Source: an uncultured Bacilli bacterium (GTDB lineage Bacteria; Bacillota_I; Bacilli_A; RFN20; CAG-826). Taken from it: 64,000 nucleotides of DNA. This document shows, in pieces, positions 29,436 through 52,842 of this stretch. The stretch lies in NCBI GenBank assembly GCA_944372115.1, contig CALVYH010000003.1, forward strand, positions 1 to 64,000, in the 5' to 3' direction. The notes under the pieces were generated by a model, which worked only from the letters and a program-made list of their open reading frames with translations, had not been told where the DNA came from and did no database searches. Position 1 is the first letter of the stretch, and each line of letters starts with the position of its first letter. Position numbers and translations under genes: made by a program.

Positions 29436-29828
29436 CTATTTATTATTTAATTTATTAATTAATAAAGAAATATTTTCTTTATTAATTTTATAGTTAATTA
29501 TATAAATAATTAAATATATAATCCCTAAAATAAATAATATACTTCCTATTCCTATTCCTAAATATGCTATAAAAGCTTCTAAAGATAAATAAGAAAAATA
29601 TGTTTCTCTAATTGTATTAATTATTGCCATTGGAATAAATATTATTCCAATAATTAATAAAATAATACCAATGATTATAAAAGAAAGAGAATAATTCTTC
29701 TTTTCTTTTAATAAAGAAGAATTATTATATTCTTTCTTTAAAATCATTTTTATTTCTTCTTCATTATTAAAAGAAGATATTCTATTAATATCTATTTTAT
29801 TAAATAATATCTTCTTTTTTTCTTTCAT
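29436..29828 (-). CDS. Small membrane protein of unknown function
   Basis: A 130-residue protein with a cytosolic, basic N-terminal part (about 45 residues, Lys/Asn-rich, no signal) followed by three close membrane helices: SFIIIGIILLIIGIIFIPM, a central YLSLEAFIAYLGIGIGSI and a LFILGIIYLIIYIINY segment. No family was recognised. It lies 13 nt after the binding-protein stop, so it is probably the last gene of the CUT1 operon. It may be only a bystander. Confidence 0.6.
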   Translation of the reverse strand: MKEKKKILFNKIDINRISSFNNEEEIKMILKKEYNNSSLLKEKKNYSLSFIIIGIILLIIGIIFIPMAIINTIRETYFSYLSLEAFIAYLGIGIGSILFILGIIYLIIYIINYKINKENISLLINKLNNK

Positions 29829-34983: not shown

Positions 34984-36420
34984 TTAAACTTCAACATAGC
35001 CAACTGTTTTTAAAGTTTCTTTAACTACATCTCTAGCTAAAATATTAGTTTCAATTATTTCTTCTGCTAATGAGGAAGTCGTTTTATAAGCTATATAGTC
35101 TATTGTAGCTAAATAGAATTTACCATTATAAGAAGTTGGTGGATTACTTCTAACAACATTTTCTTGTCCATTTAAAAACATGTTATACATCGAAGCATCA
35201 AATTTCATTAAACATAAAGTATTTTCAAATGGATAAATTTTAAGTAAATCACCATAAGTAAATTCACCCTTCATTACATCACTTCTTATTCCACCACTAT
35301 TTATACTTCCACTATCGCAAGGAATCGCTATGTTTTCATTATTAGAAGCATAAGTCATTAAAGAATAAGAAATAAATCTAGCAAATTTAGCCTTTGAAAC
35401 ATTATTTTCAAAAGTATATAAAACTTCATCTCTAATACTTTCAATATTATCTTTATATTTATTATAAACTTCATCTACTTTTAAAGATGATTCATTAAAT
35501 AAACTATCCTTATTATCCCAAGTAGAAATATTATTGAAAGACGAGGAAATTATTTCATATTCATTATTAGAATTAAGTTTTAAATCTAAAGAAATATTTG
35601 AAAGATAACTTCCATAATTTTTTCCTTCAATATATGGAACTAATTTATTTTCTTCGTCTAAATACCCGTTTTTTAAATTATGATCATGCCCTAAAAATAG
35701 AGCATCAATATAATCAACTAATTCTAAATATCTTTCATATTCACCATCATGAGTAGATAAAACTACAACTTCACATTTTTCTTTTTCTCTTAAATTTTTA
35801 GCTTCTTCTTTTATTAATTCTATATTTTCATCATAAATAAAATCATCGGCAATAGTCGCTAAAATATCATCTTCAATTCCAGGCATAATAGCACCAATAA
35901 TTCCAACATTAATCCCTTCTTTATTAATAACAGTTGAAGAAGATAAATAATAAGGTCTTTTATTAGTAGAAGCATGAAAAACATTAATTCCTAAAAGAGG
36001 AAAATCCATTTTAGAAGCCATTTCTTCTAATTTTTCTTCTCCCCAGTCAAATTCATGATTACCTATTGTCATTGAATCAAAACCAATTGCATTCATTGAT
36101 TCAATGACTACTTCTCCATAAGTAATATTGCTTTCTGCTCCACCCTGAAACATATCTCCACTAGAAATAATAAAAGTATTATCAAAATTATTATTTTTTT
36201 CATTTATTAAATAATTACCAATTCTTGATAAACCTACTTGTTTATAATCTTCATCATAAAGATATGCCCCATGAAAATCATTTAAAGCATAAAAATTTAA
36301 AGTTCTTTCTTCTATCCTTTCACCTAGCTCATCATAAGATACTTTATTTTGACAAGATGCAATTGTAATTAATGATAAAAATGTTACAAAAATATAAGAT
36401 AATCCTTTTTTTAATTTCAT
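34984..36420 (-). CDS. 5'-nucleotidase/UDP-sugar hydrolase-like lipoprotein
   Basis: A surface metallophosphoesterase that would release nucleosides and phosphate from nucleotides. Metal motifs are visible: LNDFHGAYLYDED, IGNHEFDWG, LSTHDGEYERY and LFLGHDHNLK. The C-terminal 5_nucleotid_C domain shows NSGGIRSDVMKGEFTYGDLL and IYPFENTL. The preferred start is ATG36420, preceded by aaaaggaaaaac and leading to a clean signal ending ITIASC (lipid Cys23). An upstream in-frame ATG at 36465 would add 15 basic residues. It follows the nuclease and OB-fold lipoproteins after a terminator, so it has its own promoter. Confidence 0.93.
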   Translation of the reverse strand: MKLKKGLSYIFVTFLSLITIASCQNKVSYDELGERIEERTLNFYALNDFHGAYLYDEDYKQVGLSRIGNYLINEKNNNFDNTFIISSGDMFQGGAESNITYGEVVIESMNAIGFDSMTIGNHEFDWGEEKLEEMASKMDFPLLGINVFHASTNKRPYYLSSSTVINKEGINVGIIGAIMPGIEDDILATIADDFIYDENIELIKEEAKNLREKEKCEVVVLSTHDGEYERYLELVDYIDALFLGHDHNLKNGYLDEENKLVPYIEGKNYGSYLSNISLDLKLNSNNEYEIISSSFNNISTWDNKDSLFNESSLKVDEVYNKYKDNIESIRDEVLYTFENNVSKAKFARFISYSLMTYASNNENIAIPCDSGSINSGGIRSDVMKGEFTYGDLLKIYPFENTLCLMKFDASMYNMFLNGQENVVRSNPPTSYNGKFYLATIDYIAYKTTSSLAEEIIETNILARDVVKETLKTVGYVEV

Positions 36421-36448
36421 AAGTTTTTCCTTTTTTTTATTTCTTCTT

Positions 36449-36476
36449 AAATTTATATATTTCAATATATAAATTT
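36449..36476 (-). repeat. 12-bp inverted repeat in the nucleotidase leader
   Basis: AAATTTATATAT and ATATATAAATTT are perfect complements with a 4-nt loop. It lies in the mRNA leader between the likely -10 (tataataa) and the Shine-Dalgarno. It could be a protein-binding or mRNA element; no G/C pairs support it. Confidence 0.5.
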
Positions 36477-36555: not shown

Positions 36556-38745
36556 TTATTCAGCTAATCTAACATTGTCACAAACGATTTGGATATTTCC
36601 GTTGTAATCACTTCTAACACATGTGAAGGTAATCTTATCACCAACTTTTAAGTCTTTAGTAACTTCATTTGTTAACCAATCTTTTGGATTTCCAATTGAA
36701 TATTTACCACTACCATTATAGTTATATGAAATTTTACCATCTTGTGCTGTTGCACCATAAACTGCTACTTCAAGACCACTTTCATCAGTAACAACCATAT
36801 CACCATATTCAGTAGCGCCAGGTTTATTAGTTGCCCATGATTTAATTGTAGCTGTGACCTCATAGATATATTGACCAGAAGCAGTTGCACTTGTTGCAGA
36901 TAATGGAGCACCTTCAACAACTTCTTTTAATGTTGCTTTTGTTGGAGCAATTCTTGTATCGTTTGTAGCTGCTAAAACACCAACGATTTCTTTTGTATCT
37001 TTATAATCTGATCTAATTGCGACCATTGAAATTGTATCGCCGACTTTTAAATCTTTAGTATTTGCGTGAGTATTAGCATCTTTTGGATTACTGAATTTAT
37101 ATTCACCAGTTGCTTCATCATAACTTAAAGCTGTATAAGTAGCACTGATTCCATATACAAGAATTTCTTTAGTTGCATCTTCTTCGTCAACTAAAATGAT
37201 ATTTCCGAATTGATCGATTGCTGTTTGATCACCTTTACTACCAAATCCTTTAATCTTACCTCTAACGACATAAGCTTGTTCTTTAGTATTTTGAGCTTCT
37301 AAAACTTCAGCTACTGAAGCATGGAGATAATCTGGTTCACCTTGTCTAACTGAAGCAGTTAAAGTAACAACACCAATAGCACCTGATTCTGTTGAAGCAC
37401 TAATTGTAACAGTTCCTTCACTAACACCAGTAACTAAACCATTTTCATCAACTGTAGCGACTGAAGAATCTGAAGTTGCCCATGTAATTGTTTCACCTTC
37501 TAAAGAAGCGGTGAGTTGTAAACTACTTCCAACAAATAAGTTACCTGTATAAGTAATATCAATACTTGTTGCTTCTTGATATGGTTCATCAACAACTTCG
37601 ATTAAGCTTGAATCAACTAACATTAAAGCTGCACCATCAGTAGTTTGCATGTCATTATTGTCACCTTCCCAAACTACTTCTTTATTCATAGCTTGCATAC
37701 CAGTGATATTAACAGTTTTTTCACCATTTGAATCTAAGGCTTCTTTTAAAACATCGTAAGCAGCTTTTTTAGCTTCCATATTGCTATTGTATCTATCAGC
37801 ATAGAAGAACATTTCAGCACCTTTATATTCTAAAGTTGCAACTACATAATCACCTTCAGTAACTTTACCATCAAAATGATTATCAACTAATTCAACACTT
37901 GTAACTTTAGCGCCTTCAACTCTAGACATAGTTCCATATGTTGCTTGGGAAATAAATCCTGGGTGACCTAAAACACTGAATTCAGCTGGAGCAACGCTAC
38001 TTGCATCTTCTCCACTTAAAATAGTAATTTGTGCATCACTACCTTTAATTTGTTTTGTTCCATTGTATGGTGAAGAAGTACCACTAACTTCAACGATATC
38101 ACCAACTTTTAATCCACTTGGAACTTTATTCTTTTTAATATTATAAATCATGAATCCATGATTACCTGATTGAACAAGAATTCCATACCATTGATCATCA
38201 TCGCCATCGATAAATCCAACAACTTCACCTCTAACAGCAACTAATCCGCTATTTGGAATATCTTCGATTGCAATAAGATTTTTATTATTATCGATTGTTA
38301 ATGTATATGTTAATGAGGCACTTGCGTCATTTAATGTAGCTGTAGCTGTTAATTTTACAGTACTAGTTGTTCCAAAATCTCCCCAAACAGGTCTTAATTC
38401 TAAGTGTGTTGAGCCATTAGAAGAAACTGTTTCTTCTTCTAAAGTGCCTTGAGCATAGTCCCAATCAATTGCAACATCATAAGTATTACCGCTATCTGAT
38501 AAATAACTATAAGATGTTTGAGCAATAAGGTAACTTGCAGCCTTTTGTTCGAGTTTGTTGGTGACTCCGTATGAATCATCTCTAATTGGAGCAGCTTTAT
38601 TATCTGTAATAACTGCGGAAGAATTTAAAACAGCTTTAACGATATCTTCATCTGTCATTGTTTCGCTAGCTGGTTTATCTCCACATGAAGCAAGAACTGC
38701 ACCTGCACTTAAAACTAAAGCGAGTAATAATTTAGTTTTTTTCAT
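36556..38745 (-). CDS. OB-fold/Big2 multidomain lipoprotein (YhcR-like accessory domains)
   Basis: A 729-residue surface lipoprotein; signal ends AVLASC (lipid Cys21). After about 160 residues of beta-rich sequence comes an OB-fold unit (about 168-250) with LVAVRGEVVGFIDGDDDQWY and LKVGDIVEVSGTSSPYNG. A bacterial Ig-like Big2 domain follows (about 395-465, TWATSDSSVATVDENGLVTG). Two more OB-like units are at about 475-590 and 600-728, both with LKVGD and RSDY motifs. OB units of this type occur in YhcR endonucleases, where they probably bind nucleic acid. No catalytic domain is apparent. It is cotranscribed after the nuclease gene (15-nt gap), so it may present nucleic acid to it. Shine-Dalgarno taggagg is present. 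Confidence 0.8.
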   Translation of the reverse strand: MKKTKLLLALVLSAGAVLASCGDKPASETMTDEDIVKAVLNSSAVITDNKAAPIRDDSYGVTNKLEQKAASYLIAQTSYSYLSDSGNTYDVAIDWDYAQGTLEEETVSSNGSTHLELRPVWGDFGTTSTVKLTATATLNDASASLTYTLTIDNNKNLIAIEDIPNSGLVAVRGEVVGFIDGDDDQWYGILVQSGNHGFMIYNIKKNKVPSGLKVGDIVEVSGTSSPYNGTKQIKGSDAQITILSGEDASSVAPAEFSVLGHPGFISQATYGTMSRVEGAKVTSVELVDNHFDGKVTEGDYVVATLEYKGAEMFFYADRYNSNMEAKKAAYDVLKEALDSNGEKTVNITGMQAMNKEVVWEGDNNDMQTTDGAALMLVDSSLIEVVDEPYQEATSIDITYTGNLFVGSSLQLTASLEGETITWATSDSSVATVDENGLVTGVSEGTVTISASTESGAIGVVTLTASVRQGEPDYLHASVAEVLEAQNTKEQAYVVRGKIKGFGSKGDQTAIDQFGNIILVDEEDATKEILVYGISATYTALSYDEATGEYKFSNPKDANTHANTKDLKVGDTISMVAIRSDYKDTKEIVGVLAATNDTRIAPTKATLKEVVEGAPLSATSATASGQYIYEVTATIKSWATNKPGATEYGDMVVTDESGLEVAVYGATAQDGKISYNYNGSGKYSIGNPKDWLTNEVTKDLKVGDKITFTCVRSDYNGNIQIVCDNVRLAE

Positions 38746-40170: not shown

Positions 40171-40202
40171 ATTTTTAATTTAAATAAATAATAAACACTT
40201 AA

Positions 40203-41717
40203 TTAAGCAGGAATATTATTTGGGTTTAATTGATAATATGTATCAAGTAAATCGTACCAGTAATCATCGCTTGCCGCTTCTTCTTCACTAGCTCCTTCAC
40301 AAGCTGCCATAATACCAGAAACGTTACTTCTAATTGATGATGAACCAACAAAACCTGGATCAACATATTGAGTCCAACCTTCTCCACCTTGATAAACATC
40401 AAAGTTTAATTTAACAGCATCTCTCATTGTTTTTGAAGTGCCAGTTAATGATTCATCAGTTAAATAATCTTGATAAACAGTTGATTCATAAGCATCTGTT
40501 GTAACAGGGATATAGCCAGTATTTTTAGCAAATGTTGCGTTAACTTCTGGATCATAAGTTAATGTTTTTAAAAGATCAAATGTTTGAGCTCTGTTTTCAG
40601 CATCTACATTTTTAAACATAACTAAGTTAGTTCCTTGAGAAATAACATATTTACAATCTGGTTTATCAGCATTATATGGTAATGGGTTAATTTCAACTTC
40701 AATACCATCTTGGACACAGTTACTAACACCAGCGGATGAGCCAATTGTGAAAATTGTTTTATAAGCCTTAAATGGTGTAGATGTATAACTTGATTCACCA
40801 AATGTTGATGGAATACCGATTAATCCTTCTCTGAATAATCTATTAAAGAATTTAAGCATTTCAACAGTTTCTGAACTCTTATATTGCATATAGCCTTGAG
40901 TTTTACCATTAGGTAATGTTTCAACTGTTGTATATGTGCCACCCCATTGTCTAACCATAGTAATAAAGAAGTTTGCTTGAGAGTCATAAGAACAAACTCT
41001 AAAGTCATTCTCACCGACATTAGTTAAATCAATAGCAACATCTTGTCCTGCTTCACCAGCAGCAACAGCATTTTCATAAACTACACCGTCAGCGCCAATA
41101 ACTTTATTGAAAGCACCTGTTTCTTTTAAAACTTTAAGAGTGGCTAAACCGAAAGTTTCCATTTCTTGCCATGTTGTAGGGACAGTTGTAATTTTATCAG
41201 CACCTGTTTTGTTTGCTGTCATTTTAACTAAAACATCAATAAATGTTCTATTTGTTGTTAAAACTTCAGTTGATTTATTAAATGGTAAACCCATTACATG
41301 TTCTGGAACGATTTCTAAATTTTCTTGTAAATAGTTTGAATAGAATTTATCTAAATCCATATCTTGCTCTTCGATTGTTGAAGTTAAATCAAATAAAATA
41401 CCTGATTCTTGATATTGAGCCATATGATCTGGATAAGCAACGGCTAATTGTGGATAAGTTCTAGTAGAAACAGAACCAACAATAGCAGCAAGTAAGTTAT
41501 CATAACCACCTTGTCCAGTATGAACGACTTCCCAACCTTCGTGATCAGCTTCGTAATCATTTAAAATATTGACTAATTGAGTTGTCATTGATTCACCGAA
41601 ACCAGTCCAAATGTTAATTGTCTTGCTTCCGCCAGTAGTTGAACCTTGATTACAACTTGTTAATGCAAATAAACCAATTACTGGAACTGCAGCTAACAAT
41701 TTAATTTTTTTGTTCAT
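40203..41717 (-). CDS. CUT1 solute-binding lipoprotein upstream of the nuclease
   Basis: A 504-residue lipoprotein; signal ends FALTSC (lipid Cys22). The mature start INIWTGFGESMTTQLVNILN is the family 1 binding-protein opening. LPFNKSTEVLTTNRTFIDV and ISQGTNLVMFKN match the UgpB-type core, which binds polyol- or sugar-phosphates in known members. It is the fourth gene of a unit ATPase-MalF-MalG-binding protein-nuclease-OB lipoprotein. This arrangement suggests that a nuclease-released product might be imported, but this rests on context only. A strong Shine-Dalgarno (aaggagg) is present. Confidence 0.88.
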   Translation of the reverse strand: MNKKIKLLAAVPVIGLFALTSCNQGSTTGGSKTINIWTGFGESMTTQLVNILNDYEADHEGWEVVHTGQGGYDNLLAAIVGSVSTRTYPQLAVAYPDHMAQYQESGILFDLTSTIEEQDMDLDKFYSNYLQENLEIVPEHVMGLPFNKSTEVLTTNRTFIDVLVKMTANKTGADKITTVPTTWQEMETFGLATLKVLKETGAFNKVIGADGVVYENAVAAGEAGQDVAIDLTNVGENDFRVCSYDSQANFFITMVRQWGGTYTTVETLPNGKTQGYMQYKSSETVEMLKFFNRLFREGLIGIPSTFGESSYTSTPFKAYKTIFTIGSSAGVSNCVQDGIEVEINPLPYNADKPDCKYVISQGTNLVMFKNVDAENRAQTFDLLKTLTYDPEVNATFAKNTGYIPVTTDAYESTVYQDYLTDESLTGTSKTMRDAVKLNFDVYQGGEGWTQYVDPGFVGSSSIRSNVSGIMAACEGASEEEAASDDYWYDLLDTYYQLNPNNIPA

Positions 41718-41775
41718 TTATAATTTTCCTCCTTGAACAACACTTTTAAATATATCTAATATGCGATATGCATTA

Positions 41776-42825
41776 TTAGCCTTTAATACCACTTCTAGAA
41801 ACACCTCTCATAATATACTTATGGAAGAATATAAAGAGGATAAATAGTGGCAAAGTAACAACAACGGAACCAGCCATTTTACCTGGTTGGTTATCGCTAA
41901 ATTCTGAAGAGAATGAAGCCATTAATCCGTTTGAAACTAATCTAATATCATAATCATCGCCGAAAATAACTGAATGTTGAATTCTTCCATTAGCAACAAG
42001 TTGAGGCCAAACGTAAGCATTCCATCCACCCATCAGCGAAAGAATAATAATTGTAACAATAGTTGGCATACCGATTGGAATCATAACTTTTAAAAGATAT
42101 TTCCAGTCTGTATAACCATCAACTTTAGCAGCTAAATATAATTCGTTAGGAATTTGTTGGAACGTTTGTCTTAAATAGAAAATATAGAAAACAGAAACAC
42201 CATGTACCAAAATAAGTGCATAGAATGTATTTTCCCAATTAAATTCCTTGACCAATGCATAATTAGTAATAACCATCATTTCACCAGGAATCATCATAGT
42301 TGCTAAAATAACTAAGAAAAGTGCATTTTTGCCTTTAAAATTTAATCTTGCAAAAGCAAAAGCGGCTAAAACAGAAGTAATAACTGTAACCAACATTCCG
42401 CCTGCTGCACTAATAAATGTATTCAAAAAATAAATCCAGAATGATGTTTTTTCTTGAACAATTCCTAAATTATCAACATATGTTGGAGCAAAAACCGAAA
42501 CATAATTTTCAAAAGTAAAAGGAATTGGCAAAAGTGTAATTGTATTATTGCTCTTATTCATTTCAAATGTTGTTTGAGAAATGAATGATGTTGAAATCAT
42601 AAAAAGGAATGGTAAAAGAATAAAAATTGCAAAGACAATTAAGAAAATATACATTAAAGTTTGCGAAAAAATTAATTTTGGTAAATAACTTTTACCAATT
42701 GTATATTCACCTTGTTTCTTATTACCTCTATGTTCGAGACGATATCTCTCACTTTCAGCTAACTTTTTATTACCAGTTTCTAAGTAAGCTTGTAATTCTT
42801 GTTCACTCTTAATAGCGTTTCTCAT
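41776..42825 (-). CDS. CUT1 permease, MalG-like
   Basis: A 349-residue, six-helix inner-membrane subunit. Its N-terminus is longer than usual: about 65 polar residues (AYLETGNKKLAESERYRLEH). The EAA motif reads LYLAAKVDGYTDWKYLLKVM, followed by PIGMPTIVTIIILSLMGGW. It ends YIMRGVSRSGIKG. It lies 12 nt after the MalF-like gene. A Shine-Dalgarno (aaggagg) is visible. Confidence 0.94.
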   Translation of the reverse strand: MRNAIKSEQELQAYLETGNKKLAESERYRLEHRGNKKQGEYTIGKSYLPKLIFSQTLMYIFLIVFAIFILLPFLFMISTSFISQTTFEMNKSNNTITLLPIPFTFENYVSVFAPTYVDNLGIVQEKTSFWIYFLNTFISAAGGMLVTVITSVLAAFAFARLNFKGKNALFLVILATMMIPGEMMVITNYALVKEFNWENTFYALILVHGVSVFYIFYLRQTFQQIPNELYLAAKVDGYTDWKYLLKVMIPIGMPTIVTIIILSLMGGWNAYVWPQLVANGRIQHSVIFGDDYDIRLVSNGLMASFSSEFSDNQPGKMAGSVVVTLPLFILFIFFHKYIMRGVSRSGIKG

Positions 42826-42837
42826 TATAAAACCTCC

Positions 42838-44082
42838 TTAATAGTGGACTCTTTTCTTACTAACAGCAAATTGAATGGCTGTAATTAAAAGAATAATAAT
42901 TAAAAGTACAATACTTCCTGCGGCAGCATACCCTGGATTTAATGGATTTATTTGTTTCATATCGCGATATAAATAACCGACAACCGTAATCCATTCAACA
43001 CCTTGATATCCACCAAAGAAATAGTTGTTTTGTGAAATATAAATCGATCTAACATCAGTATACATTTTGAATGCACCAATGAATGATGTTATTGTAATAT
43101 AAAGAATTTGTGGAGAAAGTAATGGAACAGTGATTTTTCTAAAAATTTTTGCTCCGCTTGCTCCATCAATTCTGGCAGCATCATAATATTGCTTGTCAAT
43201 TGTAGATAATCCTGAAAGGAAAACTAAAATTTTGAAAGCCATTTGATTCCAAACTGAATAAGTTACAATAACAACTCCTTGAGCCCATCTTGGAGCACCT
43301 TCTGTAACCCATTGTTGATTCAAACCAAAAAGAGTATTAAATAAGCCACCACCAACAGCTCCATTGGTATAGCTTGTAAAAATAAGGTTAAAAACCATAC
43401 CTAATGCAATTGTATTTGTAACATATGGTAAAAAGAAAACAGTTTGAAAAAATCCCTTTAAAAACTTAATTCTATGAATAAAATAAGCAATTAAAAGGGA
43501 AACCAAAATGGTTAATGGAACTTCTAAAATAACAAGTTCAAAAGTATTCCATAAACTCTTAATGAATAATGAGGTAGGAATATTTTGACCAAATAAATTA
43601 ATTGAATAACTAGTATTACTAAAAAGATATGTAAAATTTCCAAAACCAAAAGTTGTTGGATAAGGAGCTTCAGTACAAACAATTCCACTTCCTCCAACAG
43701 CACTCATATCTTCGCAAATTGTTGAATTTCCTTTAATGATATTAGCAATTGAGAAAGAACCTGCTCCGTCTACCCATGTAAAATCTTCGGTAAAAGCGAT
43801 AATGAAGCTATTAAAGATTGGATAAATCATGAATAAACAGATTAAAATGAAAGCAGGAATTAAAACCAAGAAAGCTAAAAGGTTTTGATTCATGTGGAAT
43901 AATCTTTTTTTTGCTTCTAATGGTCTATTAATATTAAATTTGCATGTTCCGTCAGCATTATAATAATAAGATTCTTCGTGCCCTCTATGTCTTAATCTTA
44001 AATATAAGTTATAGAAGGATTCTTTTACTTTGTTGAAGAAACTATTTTTCTTACTCGCATTATTTTCCATAACAATTACCAA
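42838..44082 (-). CDS. CUT1 permease, MalF-like
   Basis: A 414-residue permease with a ~75-residue charged cytosolic N-terminus (LRHRGHEESYYYNADGTCKF) before the first helix, and an extracytoplasmic insert of about 75 residues between helices 1 and 2 (WVDGAGSFSIANIIKGNSTI). The latter makes it larger than the companion MalF at 32471. The EAA motif is YYDAARIDGASGAKIFRKIT, followed by VPLLSPQILYITITSFIG. It ends IQFAVSKKRVHY. The start chosen at 44082 gives MVIVMENNASKK; the inner ATG four codons on is an alternative. Confidence 0.92.
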   Translation of the reverse strand: MVIVMENNASKKNSFFNKVKESFYNLYLRLRHRGHEESYYYNADGTCKFNINRPLEAKKRLFHMNQNLLAFLVLIPAFILICLFMIYPIFNSFIIAFTEDFTWVDGAGSFSIANIIKGNSTICEDMSAVGGSGIVCTEAPYPTTFGFGNFTYLFSNTSYSINLFGQNIPTSLFIKSLWNTFELVILEVPLTILVSLLIAYFIHRIKFLKGFFQTVFFLPYVTNTIALGMVFNLIFTSYTNGAVGGGLFNTLFGLNQQWVTEGAPRWAQGVVIVTYSVWNQMAFKILVFLSGLSTIDKQYYDAARIDGASGAKIFRKITVPLLSPQILYITITSFIGAFKMYTDVRSIYISQNNYFFGGYQGVEWITVVGYLYRDMKQINPLNPGYAAAGSIVLLIIILLITAIQFAVSKKRVHY

Positions 44083-44085
44083 AAA

Positions 44086-45870
44086 TTAATAAATTCTTTC
44101 TCCAGTTTCTTCAAAAACATAAATACGTTTAGCAGAGAAATTTAAGATTTCTTTACCAACACATTCTTTTGCAAGTTCTGAAGAAATAATGATTTTGACA
44201 TGTCCTTCTTCAAGTCCAACAACATCACCAATAACAGATATATCTCTACCGATATGTTCGATATTAAAAACTTTAACTGCAATTGGTCCGTTTGGATCTA
44301 AAACGAAGGATTCAGCTCTAATACCAATTTTGCATTCTCTAATAGGATTTAAACGTCCTTCTAAGGAAGCAATAATCTTTTCTATTCTCTCTTTTGATTC
44401 CTCTGAATCAATTCCATTTGAATTTCTTAAAATTTCAATTTGATAATCTTTAATTTTCTTTGTGCCTTCCCAATCGCTATCTTTATATAAATCTTCGATT
44501 TGATGTGCAAAAGGAATAACATCAATTGCAACCTTAGCTTTTTGAACGAGTTTTTTAATTTTTTTAAGTCCGTTTGGAGAAGATGCCGCTTCAACTTCTT
44601 CTATTTCTTTTAAAACTGCATTAACAAGGACTTTTTCTTCATCGTTATTAGTTTTAACTCTACTAACTTCCATTTTTCCTCTAGCAATTGCAATTTTATC
44701 TTTAATATTTAAAAGTATTTTTTCGACTTCATCCTCACTTGCAGAAGAAATGTTTTGAACTTCGCTGTTATAAACATCAATAACGCTTTGATCATCATAT
44801 TTGCAAAGAGATTTTTTAATCTTTTTAAGACCTTTTAAAAGTTGTTTGTTCTCAATTGATGGTAATGTAGCGTTTAAATAACAATCAAATTCAGGTAAAG
44901 ATTGGTTATTTTCTTCATTGTTTGCTTTTTTATCTTTTTTAGTTTCGAATTCGTTTATACCAGAAATAATATTTGTGCCGCAAACATTACAATATTTACC
45001 ATTATGAGAAACAACATTACCACAATTAGGGCAGATAACCTCTTCAATGTGTACTTTGTCTAATTCTGGGGAAGATAAAACTTCTTTTTCCGCCATATAA
45101 AGTTTTCCGTTTTCAATTCTTCCATCAAAAACATTGATTGCAGGTGTACCTAAGAATTTAGCAACGAATAAATTAGCAGGTTCATCATAAACTTTTTGTG
45201 GCTCATCTTTTTGTTGAACAATTCCATCTTTCATAACAACAATAAAATCAGAAATTGACATTGCTTCTTCTTGGTCGTGTGTAACGAAAACTGTTGTAAT
45301 TCCAGTTTCTTTTTGGATTCTCTTAATTTCTTCTCTTGTTTGAAGTCTTAATCTAGCATCAAGATTTGATAAAGGTTCATCAAGTAAAAGGACTCTTGGT
45401 CTTTTTGCTAAAGCTCTGGCAATAGCGACTCTTTGTTGTTGACCACCAGATAATTCTTTTGGTTTTCTATCTAATAATTTTTCAATATTAACAATTTTTG
45501 CATTTTCAAGTGCAATAGCACATTTTTCATCAAATGTAAGTTTAGGGACGACATTATCTAAAGGGAACATAATGTTTTGTCTAACATTAAAGTGTGGGTA
45601 AAGAGCATAGTTTTGGAAAACTAAACCAATACCACGATTTTCTGGAGGTACGTTGGTAACATCTTCATTACCGAAATATATTTTTCCTTCGGTAGGATTA
45701 TGAATTCCAGCAATCATATAGAGAGTGGTTGATTTACCACATCCAGAAGGTCCTAAAAGTCCACACAATTTTCCATCAGGAATATCGAAAGTCATATTAT
45801 TAACAGCAACTGTTTTAGCGCCTTTCTTTCCTTCAAATGTTTTAACGAGGTTTTGAATCTTAACTTCCAT
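44086..45870 (-). CDS. MsmX/MalK-type ABC ATPase with zinc-ribbon insertion in its regulatory domain
   Basis: The ATPase core is normal: Walker A GPSGCGKST (40-48), Q-loop FQNYALYPHF (85-94), signature LSGGQQQ (140-146, ordinary spacing) and LLLDEPLSNLDA. The C-terminal TOBE/OB domain is split. After about residue 270 comes an insertion to about 508. It begins with a four-Cys ribbon (Cys280, 283, 294, 297; CPNCG...CNVCG) and continues with two helical repeats, each opening GLKKIKK. The TOBE end resumes at about 514-520 (KIGIRAE). Family members have about 360-380 residues; this one has 594. It heads the operon, with Shine-Dalgarno aaaaggatg. Confidence 0.92.
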   Translation of the reverse strand: MEVKIQNLVKTFEGKKGAKTVAVNNMTFDIPDGKLCGLLGPSGCGKSTTLYMIAGIHNPTEGKIYFGNEDVTNVPPENRGIGLVFQNYALYPHFNVRQNIMFPLDNVVPKLTFDEKCAIALENAKIVNIEKLLDRKPKELSGGQQQRVAIARALAKRPRVLLLDEPLSNLDARLRLQTREEIKRIQKETGITTVFVTHDQEEAMSISDFIVVMKDGIVQQKDEPQKVYDEPANLFVAKFLGTPAINVFDGRIENGKLYMAEKEVLSSPELDKVHIEEVICPNCGNVVSHNGKYCNVCGTNIISGINEFETKKDKKANNEENNQSLPEFDCYLNATLPSIENKQLLKGLKKIKKSLCKYDDQSVIDVYNSEVQNISSASEDEVEKILLNIKDKIAIARGKMEVSRVKTNNDEEKVLVNAVLKEIEEVEAASSPNGLKKIKKLVQKAKVAIDVIPFAHQIEDLYKDSDWEGTKKIKDYQIEILRNSNGIDSEESKERIEKIIASLEGRLNPIRECKIGIRAESFVLDPNGPIAVKVFNIEHIGRDISVIGDVVGLEEGHVKIIISSELAKECVGKEILNFSAKRIYVFEETGERIY

Positions 45871-45988: not shown

Positions 45989-47146
45989 TCATAAATTTTT
46001 ATCATTTTTCTGAATTAATTTTACCCTTTCATTTACTTGATTAGATAGTTTGTCTTCCGTTTCCTTATTTAAAAACCAAACACTATTTTTTGTGTCAATA
46101 ACTCTAGTAACAGAAATTAAATCTCCTATTGAAGTATGATGTTTAGTAAAAATAATTATTAAATAATCAATTAAATAAAATAATCCTAAAGTAAAATATC
46201 CAACAAATGCTTCAGCTGAAATAAACAAATATTTAACAAAAATTTGAATCTTTTTTACTTGATACTCTTCTTTTCTAATTAAACCAAGCTTCATCATTCT
46301 CATTGATAAAGTTTCGCCGTTTTTTGATAACAGTGGAATTAAAATAAAATAAATTAATAAAGCTATAGTTAAAGAAATATAAAAAACATAACGCCCAATT
46401 CTTTCTAAATCTATATAAATTTCATAGTATTTATCAGTTTCTCTTAAATAAAAACAAGCTTGATGATAACTTCCAGGATAAGCATCTGTATCTGCAAAAA
46501 TTCTTAAATAAGCTCTAATATAAGATTGGTTTTCATTAGCAGAAAAAGATTTAGATTCATCTTTAGTATAAGTTACTCCATTATAAATTACTTGATTATA
46601 AATACCTATATTTGAAGAAGCCACTTCTCCATCTTCATCAAAAGTTAATGGATCAGAGCTTTTATCGCCATTAATAATATAAAAAGCTTTAAAATTTGGA
46701 TACTCTTCATTATCGATATTGCAAACATTTTTATAAAACCATTCATTTAATTCCTCATGATTAGGAACTTCATCAAAAATAATGTTATATCCATTTATTT
46801 TATCTAAATAATTAAAATAAAAGTTATAAAGCATTTTTAAAAATATCATATGTGAATCATATGTAAAATAACCATTTTCATCAGTTAATTTATCTGCGGA
46901 AATATAATTTACTTCAGTTAATGGTTCTTCATCGATACCAGAATCATCAAAAAATAATCCGCTATCAACCTGTATTTCTTTTACTTCTTTTAACTTTTGA
47001 GGAATATGAAAACCGTAATCAATATACCCCTCAACAGTAGGTAAATAGGTTGGGATAATAAGAATAATAATAAATAATAAATCTAAAATATATCCGAAAG
47101 TTCTCTTTCCTAAAGAACCATAATGAATCGATCTAATCTTCTCCAT
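45989..47146 (-). CDS. RDD-family membrane protein, array member 1
   Basis: A 385-residue membrane protein with the RDD-type opening (LGKRTFGYILDLLFIIILII: Arg, then an Asp inside helix 1). A large extracytoplasmic region (about 37-235) is inserted before a second helix (FYISLTIALLIYFILIPLL). GETLSMRMMKLGLIRKEE follows, the conserved loop after helix 2 (RDD: G-x-T-x-G-K-r). It ends with a further helical pair and HTSIGDLISVTRVID, matching the RDD H-D-l-x-x-T-x-V end. Function of RDD proteins is mostly unknown; some are ion antiporters or secretion-linked. Its ATG lies inside the end of array member 2. Confidence 0.8.
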   Translation of the reverse strand: MEKIRSIHYGSLGKRTFGYILDLLFIIILIIPTYLPTVEGYIDYGFHIPQKLKEVKEIQVDSGLFFDDSGIDEEPLTEVNYISADKLTDENGYFTYDSHMIFLKMLYNFYFNYLDKINGYNIIFDEVPNHEELNEWFYKNVCNIDNEEYPNFKAFYIINGDKSSDPLTFDEDGEVASSNIGIYNQVIYNGVTYTKDESKSFSANENQSYIRAYLRIFADTDAYPGSYHQACFYLRETDKYYEIYIDLERIGRYVFYISLTIALLIYFILIPLLSKNGETLSMRMMKLGLIRKEEYQVKKIQIFVKYLFISAEAFVGYFTLGLFYLIDYLIIIFTKHHTSIGDLISVTRVIDTKNSVWFLNKETEDKLSNQVNERVKLIQKNDKNL

Positions 47147-48125
47147 TTATTTTGTCTGCCTCTAATTCTTCAAAATTATTATAAATGATAGATTCTTTTT
47201 TATTTGCAACCCTAGAAAAAGATAAAAGATCAAGAAGCGAAGCGTTTTCTCTATTCATTAAAGTCGCTAACCAATTAAATAAAAAATACCCTCCATAAAT
47301 TGGTGCTAAAATAAAAACATTATCTTCAAAAAGAATAACAATTAATAAAATAACCATCGGAACATTTCTAATCAAAAAGAAATATCTTTTTTGATATAGA
47401 CCATCTTTAGAAACCAAAGCTATTTTTGTTAAAAACCTCCCTAAAGTGAATCCATATTTATTTGTAACTGGAGGAATAACAAAAATTAAGAAATAAGGTA
47501 TGAAAGCTGAAAAGAATATACGATAAACCCCTTTTTGAACGATTGAATTTCTAGCTATTTCATAAAAACTATCATTATAAAGATCACTGAAAATTTCACG
47601 ATAATGTCGAGAATAAAATGTTAAAAGGTCAGCTTTAGCATCATCAGTTAAATCCTTCGTCTTATCTTCATCTTCATAATATTTAGCTTTTATTACTCCG
47701 ATTTTAGAAGTATCTATTTTTCCATTTTCATCATATTGATATTCAAAATAAGTATAATCGGTTCCAAGTTGAAGGATTTTCTCGTTATATTCTTCAACTT
47801 TATAACAACTTCTTTCTCCACCATTTTCCTTATAAAATGAAGAGCCAAAATATTTATCAGTTAAATAATAATTTTCAACAACTTCTTGATACTTAATATA
47901 ATCTGAAGAATTTAATTGATTATAATACCCATTTTTATCTTTTATTAATAAACCCGAATAAACTTGGGCTTTAGCAACTATTTGATCTTCATCGTAAGAA
48001 TTAAATATATATTTAAAAATAAATGTTGATGCGATGAAAAATAAAACACCAAAAATAATGAAATCTATACAAATTCCAAGGAATCTTAACGACATTTTTG
48101 GATAAACAATTCTTTTATTTTCCAT
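47133..48125 (-). CDS. RDD-family membrane protein, array member 2
   Basis: A 330-residue paralogue of its neighbours. The opening is PKMSLRFLGICIDFIIFGVL (R, then D in helix 1). The extracytoplasmic region (about 38-205) is Tyr/Asp-rich. It contains helices at about 206-222, then the GFTLGRFLTKIALVSKDG loop, two more helices, and ENASLLDLLSFSRVANKKES. Shine-Dalgarno gaaggga precedes the start. Overlap with member 1 (14 nt) indicates one transcript. Confidence 0.8.
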   Translation of the reverse strand: MENKRIVYPKMSLRFLGICIDFIIFGVLFFIASTFIFKYIFNSYDEDQIVAKAQVYSGLLIKDKNGYYNQLNSSDYIKYQEVVENYYLTDKYFGSSFYKENGGERSCYKVEEYNEKILQLGTDYTYFEYQYDENGKIDTSKIGVIKAKYYEDEDKTKDLTDDAKADLLTFYSRHYREIFSDLYNDSFYEIARNSIVQKGVYRIFFSAFIPYFLIFVIPPVTNKYGFTLGRFLTKIALVSKDGLYQKRYFFLIRNVPMVILLIVILFEDNVFILAPIYGGYFLFNWLATLMNRENASLLDLLSFSRVANKKESIIYNNFEELEADKINGED

Positions 48126-48192
48126 TTAAAACATCCCTTCAAAATTTAAGTATATTAACTTTATCAAAAAATGAACTTAAATAATATAAAAA

Positions 48193-49290
48193 TTAACTTA
48201 ATATATCTTCTTTAATTAAGTAAGTTTTACTTATAACCTCGAATAAATTCTTATTTCTTTTATTAACTAAAATAAAGATAAGATTAAATAATATAAATAA
48301 GAATCCTATAAATGGAAGAGTATATAAAGTTAAATAAGAAGAATAATTTTTAATACCTATTTTAAAGATAGGTATTAAAAATAATATTGGAAAACATTCA
48401 ACACTTTTAATTAAAAAAAGGAATAAACATTCTAAATTATTAATATATGACTTATCTTTTTCTTTAATTCTTTCTACTTTAACTAAATTTTCGCCAATAC
48501 TTTCTTTTTTCTTTGAAAAAGCAGGATAAATGAAAAACAAAATAAAAGAAACTAGAAAAAACGTTATTAATGCACAATAAAAATAATTATCATTAATAAT
48601 TTTATCATTTTCATTTATTTTGTTTCGTAAAAGTAAATAAGAAGTTGAATTATCTAACGAAACTAAATCATTAACTTTAATATCATTTAATAAATATTCA
48701 TAAAATTTTGTAAATAAAACGCTTAAATTTGCATAATCTTCATACCCCTTAACACTCATTTCTTCATCTTCGTTAAAAAGTAAAATAAACTCATCTTGAT
48801 ATTCTTGTTTTAAAGAAACACTGTTATTGATTAAATAAACATCTTTTTCAAAAAAAGGTGATAAAAATTCTAACTTTAAATTATTTAAAGAAGAAACATC
48901 TTCTTTTTTTATACCAACAAAATAATTATAAAAAACATCGTATTTTGAAGTTTCTTCATTATTTTTAACTAAAAATTTGCAAAAATAATAAAATGTTTTA
49001 CTTAAAGAATCACTTAAAGAATATTTATCGCTACTTTCACTATCATCAAAAAATAAAAGTTCATGTTCATATAAAAGATTGAAAATTTCTTTTTCACCCT
49101 TCTCATTCTCTTTAATTAAATTATCATAAGAAATTATTGGTCTTGATATTTGAAATATAACAAGATTAAAAATAACTAATGAAAGTATTAAAGAAGTAAT
49201 AATATCAATAAAAAAAGAAAACATTCTATCTTTTAAAGTGACTTTCTCATTAAAACTACTTACTTCTTTTTTAATATCTTTATTTTCCAT
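48193..49290 (-). CDS. RDD-family membrane protein, array member 3
   Basis: A paralogue of about 365 residues. An in-frame GTG at 49308 would add six residues; ATG49290 is preferred because it begins MENKDIKKEVSSFNEKV, a polar N-terminus like its neighbours. RDD-like opening LKDRMFSFFIDIITSLILSL, extracytoplasmic region to about 225, a helix, then KESIGENLVKVERIKEKD in the post-helix 2 loop position. It ends NKNLFEVISKTYLIKEDIL. No Shine-Dalgarno is clear. Confidence 0.75.
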   Translation of the reverse strand: MENKDIKKEVSSFNEKVTLKDRMFSFFIDIITSLILSLVIFNLVIFQISRPIISYDNLIKENEKGEKEIFNLLYEHELLFFDDSESSDKYSLSDSLSKTFYYFCKFLVKNNEETSKYDVFYNYFVGIKKEDVSSLNNLKLEFLSPFFEKDVYLINNSVSLKQEYQDEFILLFNEDEEMSVKGYEDYANLSVLFTKFYEYLLNDIKVNDLVSLDNSTSYLLLRNKINENDKIINDNYFYCALITFFLVSFILFFIYPAFSKKKESIGENLVKVERIKEKDKSYINNLECLFLFLIKSVECFPILFLIPIFKIGIKNYSSYLTLYTLPFIGFLFILFNLIFILVNKRNKNLFEVISKTYLIKEDILS

Positions 49291-49362
49291 ACTTAGAAAA
49301 AATAACACAATTTTGATAAATATATATAATTAATTTTTCTTTAAAATCTTAACAAACTATTT

Positions 49363-50310
49363 TTACCTTCCTTCATTTTTCTTCTTACTATATAAATACT
49401 CTTCATAATTTAAATAAAATTTCTTATTTTCATTACTTAAACTATAGGATTGAGATAAATATTCGTTTAAATTTTGGTGAGAAATAGAAAAAATCATCAT
49501 CCCTATACTTATTAATAAGGGAATAAAAAATGTAAAAAGAGATAATAAAAATTCAAGGAAGAAAAAGTATAAAAACTTAATTAAGAAATCTTTTTTAGAT
49601 AATGAAAATCCATTTACTTTTAAATTTCCAAATCTAAAAATTAATTTTCCGATTGTTTTATTTCCTCTTTTTATAATTAAAGGAATAAAAAGATAAAATA
49701 TTAAAACACTAATAATAATTGATGAAACTAATAAAATAATTTGAAAAATAAATATTTTATTAGTTTCATTTTTATAAATATCGTTTTGAAGTAAATATCC
49801 TATCGCATTTTCATTAATTATATAAATATAAAATTCAACAAAATCTTTATCTAAAGCATCTACTTTTTCTTTTATTTCGTTACTTATTTCATCTTTATAA
49901 AATAAATTATTCCCATATTCTAACTTTAATTCGTTTAATAAATTATTGCCAAAAGAAGAAATACCACTATAACAATTTAAATTAATATAAAAGTAATTAA
50001 CTCTTTTTTCTAAATCTTTTCTTTTTTCATTATTAGAAATAGTTTTATTATTTTCATAATAATCACTAATTAAAATATATTCTTCATTACTTTTTATATA
50101 TAAAGAAGAATCTTCTATAACCGTGTTTATAGAAGATATACTTTCTTTATATATAGAAGTATTTGTATAAATAAAAAGTGAAGATAAAGTTAAAATTAAC
50201 GCTAAAAAGATAGTAATAAATATATCGATTATCGCACTAAAAAACCTTTTATATAAAGGAACATAATCATATTCTATTTCTATTACATTTTCTTTTTTTT
50301 CTTTTTCCAT
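49363..50310 (-). CDS. RDD-family membrane protein, array member 4
   Basis: A 315-residue paralogue. It opens VPLYKRFFSAIIDIFITIFL (R, then D in helix 1). A Ser/Asn/Tyr-rich extracytoplasmic region runs to about 185. A helix precedes GNKTIGKLIFRFGNLKVNG, the best-preserved RDD loop (G-x-T-I-G-K) of the five. It ends NLNEYLSQSYSLSNENKKF. An AT-rich possible -10 (TAAAAT) lies 9 nt before the ATG, so internal leaderless transcription is possible. Confidence 0.78.
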   Translation of the reverse strand: MEKEKKENVIEIEYDYVPLYKRFFSAIIDIFITIFLALILTLSSLFIYTNTSIYKESISSINTVIEDSSLYIKSNEEYILISDYYENNKTISNNEKRKDLEKRVNYFYINLNCYSGISSFGNNLLNELKLEYGNNLFYKDEISNEIKEKVDALDKDFVEFYIYIINENAIGYLLQNDIYKNETNKIFIFQIILLVSSIIISVLIFYLFIPLIIKRGNKTIGKLIFRFGNLKVNGFSLSKKDFLIKFLYFFFLEFLLSLFTFFIPLLISIGMMIFSISHQNLNEYLSQSYSLSNENKKFYLNYEEYLYSKKKNEGR

Positions 50311-50366
50311 CGTTTAATTATTTTATTAAATTTAAAAAATAATATAAAACTTATTTATTTCATTCT

Positions 50367-51536
50367 TTATTTCATTTCATTTATAAATTCATCACTTTTT
50401 TTAATAATTTCATTACTGCCTAAATTTATTAAAGAATAGTGTTTTTTATTTAAAAGAGGTAAAAACATATTAATTAATAAAAGTAGAAAAGAGAATATTG
50501 ATATATTAAAAATATTTATAAAACCTATAAAAATCATATTTAAATATGAAAAATAAAATAAAAATATAAAAATAAGCAATGAAAATAAGAATATTAAATA
50601 AAGAAGTATAAATTTTGTTAAATAATTTATAAATTTTAAATTTAAGTTAGTTTTTTTATTTGCCCCAACAAGTTTAAACATCTTCATCATTAAAGTTTGA
50701 TCTTTTTTGAAAATTAAAAGCGGAATTAAAAAATAAATAATAAAAGCTAATGTATAAGAAATAAATAGTTCATAAATTAAGTAAATATAATATTCATCAT
50801 TTAATTTTTTAAAATCAGAAAATGATAAATTATAATTACTATCATTACTTTCAAAATCTTTAATTAATTCATTATAAAAAAGTGAGTAATTATCTAAATA
50901 TTCATTATAAAACGAACTATATTCATTAGAATAATCTTCTTCAAAAATATATTTTGTTAATTTTAAAGCAACTTCTTCTTTAAAAAGAAAATAGTTAGTT
51001 TCTAAAAAGTTATTTTCATAATAATTAATAAAATATTTATTAAAAAGCTCTAAAATAAACTCATCATTTTTACTTTTATCTTTTGTTATATTATTTAAAC
51101 GATAATTAAATAAATAAAAATTTATATTTTCTTCACTATAATCATCAAAAATTTCATAATCTTTATATAAATTTCCTTTAAATTCATAGTTAATACCAAC
51201 TAAATAAGTTTTTAAGCTCCTTCTTATTTCTTTATAAATAGTATCTTCAAAAGAAATTAAGTTATTATCTTCTATTTCTAAAAGCGAAGAAGATTCGGAA
51301 ATTTTATATAAATTTCCTCTACTTTCATTAATTTCACTAATTTTATTACTTACACTAGGAATTAAAAAACCAATTTGATTAGTAAAAATACCTTGAATTA
51401 ATGAAAAAAGAATAAAAAATAAAGCAAAATCTAATAAAAATACTAAAAATCTCTTTTTTGAAGGAGCATTTTCATTTAAAGAATAATTAAAATTCTTATT
51501 AATATTTTTATCTTTTATTAAAAATATATTTTTCAT
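50367..51536 (-). CDS. RDD-family membrane protein, array member 5
   Basis: A 389-residue paralogue, first of the array after the SIR2 gene. The opening APSKKRFLVFLLDFALFFIL has R and D in the RDD positions. The extracytoplasmic region (about 50-255) is long and Tyr/Asn-rich. Then a helix, KDQTLMMKMFKLVGANKKTN (post-helix 2 loop), two helices, and KHYSLINLGSNEIIKKSDEF. Its ATG is 7 nt beyond the SIR2 stop, and no Shine-Dalgarno is evident. Confidence 0.77.
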   Translation of the reverse strand: MKNIFLIKDKNINKNFNYSLNENAPSKKRFLVFLLDFALFFILFSLIQGIFTNQIGFLIPSVSNKISEINESRGNLYKISESSSLLEIEDNNLISFEDTIYKEIRRSLKTYLVGINYEFKGNLYKDYEIFDDYSEENINFYLFNYRLNNITKDKSKNDEFILELFNKYFINYYENNFLETNYFLFKEEVALKLTKYIFEEDYSNEYSSFYNEYLDNYSLFYNELIKDFESNDSNYNLSFSDFKKLNDEYYIYLIYELFISYTLAFIIYFLIPLLIFKKDQTLMMKMFKLVGANKKTNLNLKFINYLTKFILLYLIFLFSLLIFIFLFYFSYLNMIFIGFINIFNISIFSFLLLLINMFLPLLNKKHYSLINLGSNEIIKKSDEFINEMK

Positions 51537-51543
51537 TTAAAAA

Positions 51544-52842
51544 TTAATCAATTTTTCTAAGCCAATCACCGATTTCACTATAATCATCAATCCAAATAGT
51601 AATCAAATCATATGAGAAAAAATAATTTGTAACATCTCTAAATGTTTTTTCACCATATCTTTCTTCTTTTTTCATAAATATAAAATTAAATTTTAAAAAG
51701 TTAGAAGCTAATTCTAATAATCTTTTCATATTTGGATCAGTTAAAGATATTCCAATAAAAATTGATGTTTTAAACATAAAATCATGTAATTGCTTAGCAA
51801 TATTCCATGAATATGGGTTGTTATAAAGATAAAAATATTCAGATTCATTAAAAATTAATGAATCTGTAAATTTTTCTTCATTGTATTTATCAAAAGGAAG
51901 TAATCCATGCACATGATAAATATCCACCTTTGCATCTTTAGTTAAAAAGGCGTTATCATCATAAACCGTGTTATATAAAATACCCCTTCTTTTAAGAATG
52001 TACTCTAAGTTTGTGTCGTAATTATATGTGATAACTGTTGTTTTATTCTGTCTTTCAATAAAATTGGTTAATTCATATAAAGTAGAATTAGGATCATCAA
52101 AATCAATATTGTCCTTAAAAAGATATAATTCTTTATTTAATTCTTTATAAGTATCAAATCCGTTAGTTTTTAAAATTTTTGAAGAAACGAAAAGTTCATT
52201 TCCAACATAATGAGAAATTTCTTCCATTCTTTCCTCATTTCCTTCATAAAAAGTTGAATTTAAGGCTGAAATTAAATGTTTCCAATCTTTTGCACCATAA
52301 TTTACATTCATTCCCGCTCCTAAAATAAGGTCAGTATCAAGTTGATAAGTAAAAAGTTTTAAAAGATAAAGAATGAAAGAATCTTCATTTTCTTCTTGTC
52401 TATCTAAGTTTAAACGATATAAAAGTTCATCTTTAAATAAAGATTCATCTTTTTTCTTTAAAGTGTAGTTAATTTTCTTTCCTTCAATATATCCAACAGC
52501 TAAAAAATTATCTTCATCGAAGTAAATATTTAAACTCGATAACGGAATATAAGGATCTAAATTTTTTAAAGATTTTACTTTAAAGAAATTTACGTTACCC
52601 ATAATATCTACCTCCTCTAAATTAACTTTAAAAATAGAAGAGTAAATATGAACAACATATTTATGAATATGGTCATGAGATGAATAAACAACAACTTTAA
52701 AATTACATTTTGGATCGAAATGAAATCCGAAAGATCTAAAAATTATTTTTTTATAACTAACTCCATTTAAATAATATAAATAAAGTAAGATAAGTAAGCA
52801 TTTTTTGCTAAATATGTAATTTTCTCTTTCTTTTTTTCTCAT
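51544..52842 (-). CDS. SIR2-like domain protein (predicted NAD+ hydrolase or binder)
   Basis: About 432 residues from ATG52842; an upstream TTG would add 16 residues. The first ~165 residues are an uncharacterised domain. The SIR2_2-type core follows: LILGAGMNVNYGAKDWKHL (175-177 GAG loop), VITYNYDTNLEYI (Asn274, normally TTNYD), and IYHVHGLLPFD (the catalytic-type His312). SEYFYLYNNPYSWNIAKQL, then FIGISLTDPNMKRLLELA, complete the SIR2_2 pattern. Such domains act as NADases in bacterial antiphage systems (ThsA, DSR, SIR2-containing Argonaute partners). Here it leads five RDD membrane genes with a 7-nt gap. No transmembrane region is seen. Immune function is inferred, not shown. Confidence 0.85.
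   Translation of the reverse strand: MRKKERENYIFSKKCLLILLYLYYLNGVSYKKIIFRSFGFHFDPKCNFKVVVYSSHDHIHKYVVHIYSSIFKVNLEEVDIMGNVNFFKVKSLKNLDPYIPLSSLNIYFDEDNFLAVGYIEGKKINYTLKKKDESLFKDELLYRLNLDRQEENEDSFILYLLKLFTYQLDTDLILGAGMNVNYGAKDWKHLISALNSTFYEGNEERMEEISHYVGNELFVSSKILKTNGFDTYKELNKELYLFKDNIDFDDPNSTLYELTNFIERQNKTTVITYNYDTNLEYILKRRGILYNTVYDDNAFLTKDAKVDIYHVHGLLPFDKYNEEKFTDSLIFNESEYFYLYNNPYSWNIAKQLHDFMFKTSIFIGISLTDPNMKRLLELASNFLKFNFIFMKKEERYGEKTFRDVTNYFFSYDLITIWIDDYSEIGDWLRKID

What the first reader, a model, noticed from the sequence alone, without database searches (positions are those of the whole stretch)
45989..52842. SIR2-like gene followed by five tandem RDD membrane proteins: possible uncharacterised defence or membrane cassette
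Six minus-strand genes are packed from 52.8 to 46.0 kb. The SIR2 stop is 7 nt from the first RDD start, and the last two RDD genes overlap. All five RDD proteins share R/D in helix 1, a large extracytoplasmic domain between helices 1 and 2, and an RDD-type loop. SIR2 domains act as NADases in several antiphage systems, usually coupled to a sensor. Five diverged membrane partners would be a novel sensor or effector set. Paralogue divergence in extracytoplasmic domains suggests different ligands or fast evolution.
Basis: partly seen in the sequence, partly recalled or inferred. Interest (0 to 1): 0.75.

Follow-up and report, generated by a model that had tools for sequence, protein, structure and literature searches.

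The report
Membrane pairs in nucleic-acid salvage operon
The five membrane genes and the sirtuin-like gene head a long operon that probably lets uncultured gut bacteria digest outside nucleic acids and import the pieces; the membrane genes belong to the importers, the sirtuin-like gene is an optional but ancient extra, and an antiviral role is not supported.

Summary
Observation confirmed. At 52842-45989 (minus strand) lie a SIR2_2 gene (catalytic Asn274/His312 invariant) and five RDD-type genes (four above the Pfam cut-off; RDD_A 19.3 bits against 24.1).

The interpretation changes. The RDD genes come as pairs: class 1 (A, C, D) and class 2 (B, E). The window holds pairs A-B and D-E plus orphan C. 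Such RDD genes occur in 253/279 genomes of the order; the SIR2 gene in only 37 (33 clear orthologues). They stand in front of CUT1-type ABC importers followed by a secreted SNase: in 40 genera, 24 of 29 SNase genes lie 0.8-12 kb downstream of RDD genes on the same strand (0.33 expected). RDD and importer trees are congruent (r 0.76-0.90). The window is one 18-gene directon, 52842-29436, with two importers, an SNase and a 5'-nucleotidase. It resembles the Mycoplasma SNase-ABC nucleotide-import operon plus RDD pairs and, optionally, SIR2.

The SIR2-RDD link is real: RDD within 4 kb in 23/31 loci, several overlapping by 4 nt. SIR2 is vertically inherited (Mantel r 0.80), strongly constrained (dN/dS 0.03-0.12) and patchy. 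That fits salvage physiology better than mobile defence. Its biochemical role is unproven.

The parts
51544..52842 (-). SIR2_2-domain protein (432 aa): N-terminal unknown alpha+beta domain (about 1-165) plus SIR2 domain (about 168-431), catalytic Asn274 and His312
   Evidence: PF13289 52 bits; Asn/His/GAGxN invariant; aligned to EcThsA Asn/His region; Foldseek best matches ThsA, KomC, DSR2
50367..51536 (-). RDD_A, class 1 (first gene) of the type II pair A-B
   Evidence: Pfam RDD 19.3 bits (below cut-off); family HMM E 7e-69; RDD tree
49363..50310 (-). RDD_B, class 2 (second gene) of the type II pair; confident model, mean pLDDT 91
   Evidence: Pfam RDD 33 bits; tree; model
48193..49290 (-). 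RDD_C, class 1 member of the type I pair; its class 2 partner is missing here (orphan)
   Evidence: Pfam RDD 35 bits; tree; intact type I pairs in L050, L053, L054
47133..48125 (-). RDD_D, class 1 of the type III pair D-E
   Evidence: Pfam RDD 29.6 bits; tree
45989..47146 (-). RDD_E, class 2 of the type III pair
   Evidence: Pfam RDD 42 bits; tree
44086..45870 (-). Importer III ATPase (MsmK/UgpC-like) with an insertion in the C-terminal part that carries a zinc-ribbon-like motif
   Evidence: ABC_tran 127 bits, weak zinc-ribbon matches at 277-298
42838..44082 (-). Importer III permease 1
   Evidence: position and homology to the permeases of the other importers; perm1 tree
41776..42825 (-). Importer III permease 2
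   Evidence: position and homology
40203..41717 (-). Importer III solute-binding lipoprotein
   Evidence: SBP_bac_8 82 bits
38761..40170 (-). Secreted SNase (thermonuclease) lipoprotein with R/E/R active-site residues present
   Evidence: PF00565 43 bits; residues aligned in 20 proteins
36556..38745 (-). OB-fold/Big_2 lipoprotein, recurrent neighbour of the SNase
34984..36465 (-). 5'-nucleotidase/UshA-like surface phosphoesterase
   Evidence: PF02872, PF00149; below-cut-off NCBIfam nucleotidase matches
33420..34898 (-). Importer II ATPase (about 110-residue insertion before the signature motif)
   Evidence: homology to the MsmK set; sequence
32471..33403 (-). Importer II permease 1; groups with type II importers, whose RDD pair is A-B-like
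   Evidence: perm1 tree
31509..32468 (-). Importer II permease 2
   Evidence: position and homology
29842..31350 (-). Importer II solute-binding protein
   Evidence: homology to importer SBPs
29436..29828 (-). Last gene of the directon (130 aa, unknown); homologues beside importer genes in relatives

Best explanation
This is the head of a surface nucleic-acid salvage operon. Proposed mechanism: a membrane-anchored SNase and a 5'-nucleotidase break down outside DNA/RNA; solute-binding lipoproteins capture the products; CUT1-type ABC importers take them in. Each importer has its own pair of RDD membrane proteins (class 1 + class 2), most likely a heteromeric accessory complex whose ectodomains organise the nuclease and binding lipoproteins at the permease. 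The SIR2 protein is a probably cytosolic, probably NAD-cleaving enzyme that rides at the head of some of these operons and most likely tunes salvage or nucleotide/NAD balance. Shown: gene content and order, conservation, pairing, congruent trees, vertical descent, active-site residues. Inferred: substrate, the physical RDD complex, and all of SIR2's biochemical role.
For: The gene order RDD(1-4)-[510-717 aa]-ATPase-perm1-perm2-SBP(1-2)-SNase was read in 12 loci of as many genera and in the SIR2-bearing operons of G020, G239, G243 and G236. 24 of 29 SNase genes lie downstream of RDD genes on the same strand, against 0.33 expected; the other five lie on contigs with no RDD hit, three of them within 2.4 kb of a contig start. 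RDD class 1 and class 2 halves of the tree mirror each other, and RDD, ATPase and permease trees agree (r 0.76-0.90, 0/1999). The SNase keeps its catalytic residues in 20 aligned proteins, and the window operon also encodes a 5'-nucleotidase. Precedent: the polycistronic SBP-SNase-ABC locus MAG_5030-5070 (PMC3585158), M. hominis MHO_720-760 (PMC5533444) and M. bovis MBOVPG45_0307-0311 (PMC4045577). SBPs of relatives weakly match Pfam Lipoprotein_X, Mycoplasma MG185/MG260. SIR2: RDD within 4 kb in 23/31 loci, gaps mostly from -4 to +20 nt; vertical descent; dN/dS 0.03-0.12.
Against: The importer substrate is not determined by sequence: CUT1 importers usually carry sugars, and 13 of 40 genera have RDD genes but no detected SNase. 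No RDD structure matches the PDB, so no complex can be modelled from homology. SIR2 is missing from most genomes that have RDD genes and is unlinked in 8/31 loci, so it cannot be an obligate part. Tree congruence partly reflects shared species history.
Confidence: 0.68

Rival explanations
1. Anti-phage cassette: the RDD proteins sense phage attack at the surface and the SIR2 protein answers by depleting NAD+, as in Thoeris or DSR2.
For: The nearest folds of the SIR2 protein are ThsA, KomC and DSR2; the ThsA-critical Asn and His are kept (PMC7272460); patchy presence, 37/279; RDD genes evolve faster than their neighbours.
Against: No other defence gene was seen beside it; PADLOC hits are weak and partial. 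RDD genes are near universal without SIR2 and belong to nuclease-importer operons. SIR2 is vertical and not far below AsnRS in conservation, unlike typical mobile defence genes.
Confidence: 0.15
2. Carbohydrate importers: the CUT1 systems carry sugars, the RDD pair is a general CUT1 accessory in this order, and the SNase is a passenger.
For: CUT1-type components; 13 of 40 sampled genera have RDD genes but no SNase hit.
Against: The SNase is at a fixed place in the operon across several families, with a 5'-nucleotidase in several loci; the Mycoplasma counterparts are regarded as nucleotide importers.
Confidence: 0.2
3. The RDD proteins are ion/H+ antiporters, as reported for Halobacillus RDD, that energise or buffer the surface.
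For: Reported antiport by an RDD protein, with conserved Arg/Asp needed (cited in PMC7568657); Arg and Asp of helix 1 are kept here.
Against: Large ectodomains, pairing and cognate importer co-evolution are not explained; the related SppI showed no salt or pH phenotype; the third RDD Asp is lost in RDD_A, B and C (by inspection).
Confidence: 0.1
4. SIR2-RDD adjacency is an accident of gene order with no functional link between them.
For: SIR2 persists without RDD neighbours in 8/31 loci, and RDD genes persist without SIR2 in most genomes.
Against: RDD lies next to SIR2 in distinct genera with different upstream genes and with different RDD pair types; overlaps of 4 nt.
Confidence: 0.15

Closest known systems
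Mycoplasma SNase-ABC nucleotide-import operon (MAG_5030-5070; MBOVPG45_0307-0311; MHO_720-760)
   Same: Surface SNase lipoprotein, SBP lipoprotein, sugar-type ATPase and two permeases in one operon
   Different: Here an RDD pair heads each importer, often with a 500-700 aa membrane protein, OB/Big_2 lipoproteins and sometimes a 5'-nucleotidase, and in some lineages a SIR2 gene; the SNase comes last, not before the ATPase
RDD family (PF06271), e.g. B. subtilis SppI and Halobacillus RDD
   Same: RDD membrane core with Arg and Asp in helix 1
   Different: Ectodomain of about 120-200 residues between helices 1 and 2, class 1/class 2 pairs, cognate ABC importers
SIR2_2 NADases: Thoeris ThsA, KomC (HAM1-SIR2-HerA), DSR2
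   Same: SIR2 fold and catalytic Asn/His
   Different: No C-terminal SLOG or large helical domain; instead an N-terminal alpha+beta domain with no PDB sequence match; vertical inheritance, mostly at the head of a salvage operon

Membership tests
RDD family (PF06271) | Score above the Pfam gathering cut-off | tested here: met
   Four of five above 24.1 bits; RDD_A 19.3, but within the family HMM built here
RDD family (PF06271) | Conserved Arg and two Asp | tested here: inconclusive
   Arg and Asp of helix 1 present in all five; the last Asp is kept in D and E and lost in A, B, C (by inspection)
Mycoplasma-type SNase-ABC nucleotide-import operon | SNase lipoprotein, SBP, ATPase and two permeases co-directional | tested here: met
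   Window 38761-45870; 12 further loci
Mycoplasma-type SNase-ABC nucleotide-import operon | Import of nucleic-acid precursors | not testable with these tools
   Needs binding or uptake assays
SIR2_2 NAD-cleaving proteins | Catalytic Asn and His | tested here: met
   Asn274 and His312 invariant; aligned with EcThsA
SIR2_2 NAD-cleaving proteins | NAD+ hydrolysis | not testable with these tools
   Needs an enzyme assay
Thoeris | ThsB TIR partner and ThsA SLOG sensor domain | tested here: not met
   No PADLOC ThsB hit among 10 local proteins; the SIR2 domain ends at the C terminus and nothing follows it
Anti-phage defence system in general | Clustering with other defence genes and horizontal spread | tested here: not met
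   Neighbours are transport and salvage genes; SIR2 tree follows AsnRS

The most novel reading that the evidence does not exclude
RDD class 1/class 2 heteromers are a previously unrecognised subunit pair of ABC importers that feed on extracellular nucleic acids, and a ThsA-like SIR2 enzyme has been domesticated as a metabolic switch of nucleotide/NAD salvage rather than a defence NADase.
Probability: 0.3. Interest if true: 0.8.

Novelty: new variant of a known kind. Interest (0 to 1): 0.55.

Why it matters
RDD proteins (PF06271) are widespread and almost without assigned function. A tight genomic and phylogenetic link of paired RDD proteins to nuclease-linked importers across an order gives a testable function. 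It also shows a ThsA-like SIR2 protein held by vertical descent and strong purifying selection at the head of a nutrient operon, a warning against calling every SIR2_2 gene a defence gene. Scavenging of outside DNA/RNA may be a core trait of these small-genome gut bacteria, as in mycoplasmas.

Tried and rejected
After the genus survey I first concluded that SIR2 and RDD were unrelated neighbours; the genome-contig scan showed SIR2 directly upstream of RDD pairs in other genera, so I revised this. I considered a SIR2-NAD-synthesis module because PncB-NadD-NadE lie beside SIR2 in G020 and G017 (for G020; G017 by synteny); it is lineage specific, and PncB is rarer in SIR2-positive genomes of the genus (4/15 against 9/11, Fisher 0.015, not corrected for phylogeny). 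Foldseek of the RDD model gave no significant PDB match, and profile searches of the PDB gave none for SIR2 or RDD. A search for decayed SIR2 remnants at SIR2-less loci found none. The promoter scan was uninformative; three terminator-like sites, no more than chance. Literature searches for MG186/MG187 and FAM8A1 found nothing.

Full report
Observation. Six minus-strand genes lie at 52842-45989 as described. Pfam finds SIR2_2 in the first and RDD in four of the other five; RDD_A is sub-threshold but clearly in the family by an HMM built from the genus set. The directon does not stop at 45989. All genes down to 29436 share the strand with gaps of at most 159 nt: ATPase, two permeases and SBP of importer III, an SNase lipoprotein, an OB/Big_2 lipoprotein, a 5'-nucleotidase, then ATPase, two permeases and SBP of importer II, and a 130-aa ORF.

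Taxonomy. The window lies in a 1.25-Mb, 96%-complete draft genome. Named relatives are uncultured gut Bacilli, including Candidatus Onthovivens merdipullorum.

RDD genes are paired and belong to importers. In 26 genomes of the genus, RDD genes sit mostly beside CUT1-type importers with or without SIR2. A tree of 119 RDD proteins splits into two mirrored halves, first gene and second gene of a pair (root split weakly supported). A, C and D are first-type; B and E are second-type. Intact relatives show three pair types: type I (C-like, with a roughly 510-aa membrane protein), type II (A-B) and type III (D-E). The window therefore holds two pairs plus an orphan. The permease at 32471-33403 groups with a type II importer, so A-B most likely belong to importer II, and D-E to importer III directly downstream. 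Across 36 operons the trees of RDD1, RDD2, ATPase and permease 1 agree (r 0.76-0.90, none of 1999 permutations as high).

Order-wide test. RDD proteins of this type occur in 253/279 genomes and 48/56 genera. In one genome from each of 40 genera, 24 of 29 SNase genes lie 0.8-12 kb downstream of RDD genes on the same strand; 0.33 were expected. Eleven of the twelve loci then read (all chosen to hold an RDD cluster; L192 without a prior SNase hit) show RDD(1-4)-[510-717 aa]-ATPase-perm1-perm2-SBP(1-2)-SNase intact, and L187 shows it with several genes broken. In L103, L184 and L190 the gene upstream of SIR2 or RDD is, or includes, EF-Tu, so in several lineages the operon lies after the str operon, a stable core location. 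The SNase R/E/R active-site residues are kept in 20 aligned proteins, by inspection.

SIR2. The catalytic Asn274, His312 and the GxGxN motif are invariant in 28 aligned relatives. Its best structural neighbours are ThsA, KomC and DSR2 (model pLDDT 78). The Asn/His region aligns with EcThsA; mutation of Asn112 or His152 in ThsA abolishes NAD+ cleavage (PMC7272460). The N-terminal ~165 residues have no PDB sequence match. Hits occur in 37/279 genomes of the order, four of them weak or broken; a scan of 84,980 species found 30 loci in uncultured Bacilli-type genomes (a few with other labels) plus one distant Prevotella hit. In 31 distinct loci an RDD gene lies within 4 kb in 23, is the next gene on the same strand in 19, and several overlap by 4 nt. 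SIR2 and AsnRS trees agree (Mantel r 0.80, 0/9999). dN/dS against close relatives is 0.03-0.12 for SIR2 and 0.12-0.56 for RDD genes, none above 1; the ectodomain is not consistently faster than the core. At SIR2-less loci in syntenic relatives, such as L075, the gene is absent without remnants.

Mechanism. Mycoplasmas have a polycistronic SBP-SNase-ABC locus thought to import nucleic-acid precursors (PMC3585158; PMC4045577; PMC5533444). The operon here has the same parts plus the RDD pair. The best reading is surface digestion of nucleic acids and import of products, with the RDD pair as cognate accessory membrane subunits. A precedent for RDD proteins as regulatory partners is SppI, which binds and inhibits SppA in B. 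subtilis; an antiporter role is reported for Halobacillus RDD (PMC7568657). For SIR2 I commit, with low confidence (about 0.4), to an NAD-cleaving or NAD-dependent enzyme that tunes salvage; a defence role (0.15) is not excluded.

Limits. Function is inferred from sequence only. Genomes are mostly draft MAGs, so absences can be assembly gaps. The SNase chance estimate assumes uniform gene placement and 1.1-Mb genomes. Tree congruence is not corrected for species phylogeny. Gene calls in relatives are mechanical ORFs.

Noticed in passing
window 53950-54576; L050 1897-5859; L051 11238-15188: NadD-like gene beside SIR2; G020 has PncB-NadD-NadE there and G017 the same arrangement. In the genus, PncB is rarer in SIR2-positive genomes (4/15 against 9/11).
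   Followed up: partly
window 44086-45870, 33420-34898, 13244-15256: CUT1 ATPases carry unusual insertions: a zinc-ribbon-like plus helical insertion in the C-terminal part of one, and roughly 110-residue or longer insertions before the signature motif in the others.
   Followed up: no
L050 10584-12113, L054 1277-2812, L184 9732, L190 9395: A 500-717 aa membrane protein with a large predicted extracytoplasmic part and no Pfam family sits between type I RDD pairs and the ATPase.
   Followed up: partly
L172 5672-6145, L173 3798-4274, L171 4602-5294: Small protein with weak zinc-ribbon and membrane-protein matches between the SNase and the OB/Big_2 lipoprotein in type I operons.
   Followed up: no
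L102, L103, L105, L184, L190: The RDD-importer operon lies after the str operon (EF-G, EF-Tu) in several lineages.
   Followed up: partly
window 51840-51866: A 12-bp hairpin followed by a T-run lies inside the SIR2 coding sequence.
   Followed up: no
window 48000-52000: RDD_A to RDD_C have very low GC (about 18%) against 29-32% for the importer III genes.
   Followed up: no
window 4054-5712: BPD_transp_2 permease next to an ABC-like gene, possibly a separate nucleoside-type importer.
   Followed up: no
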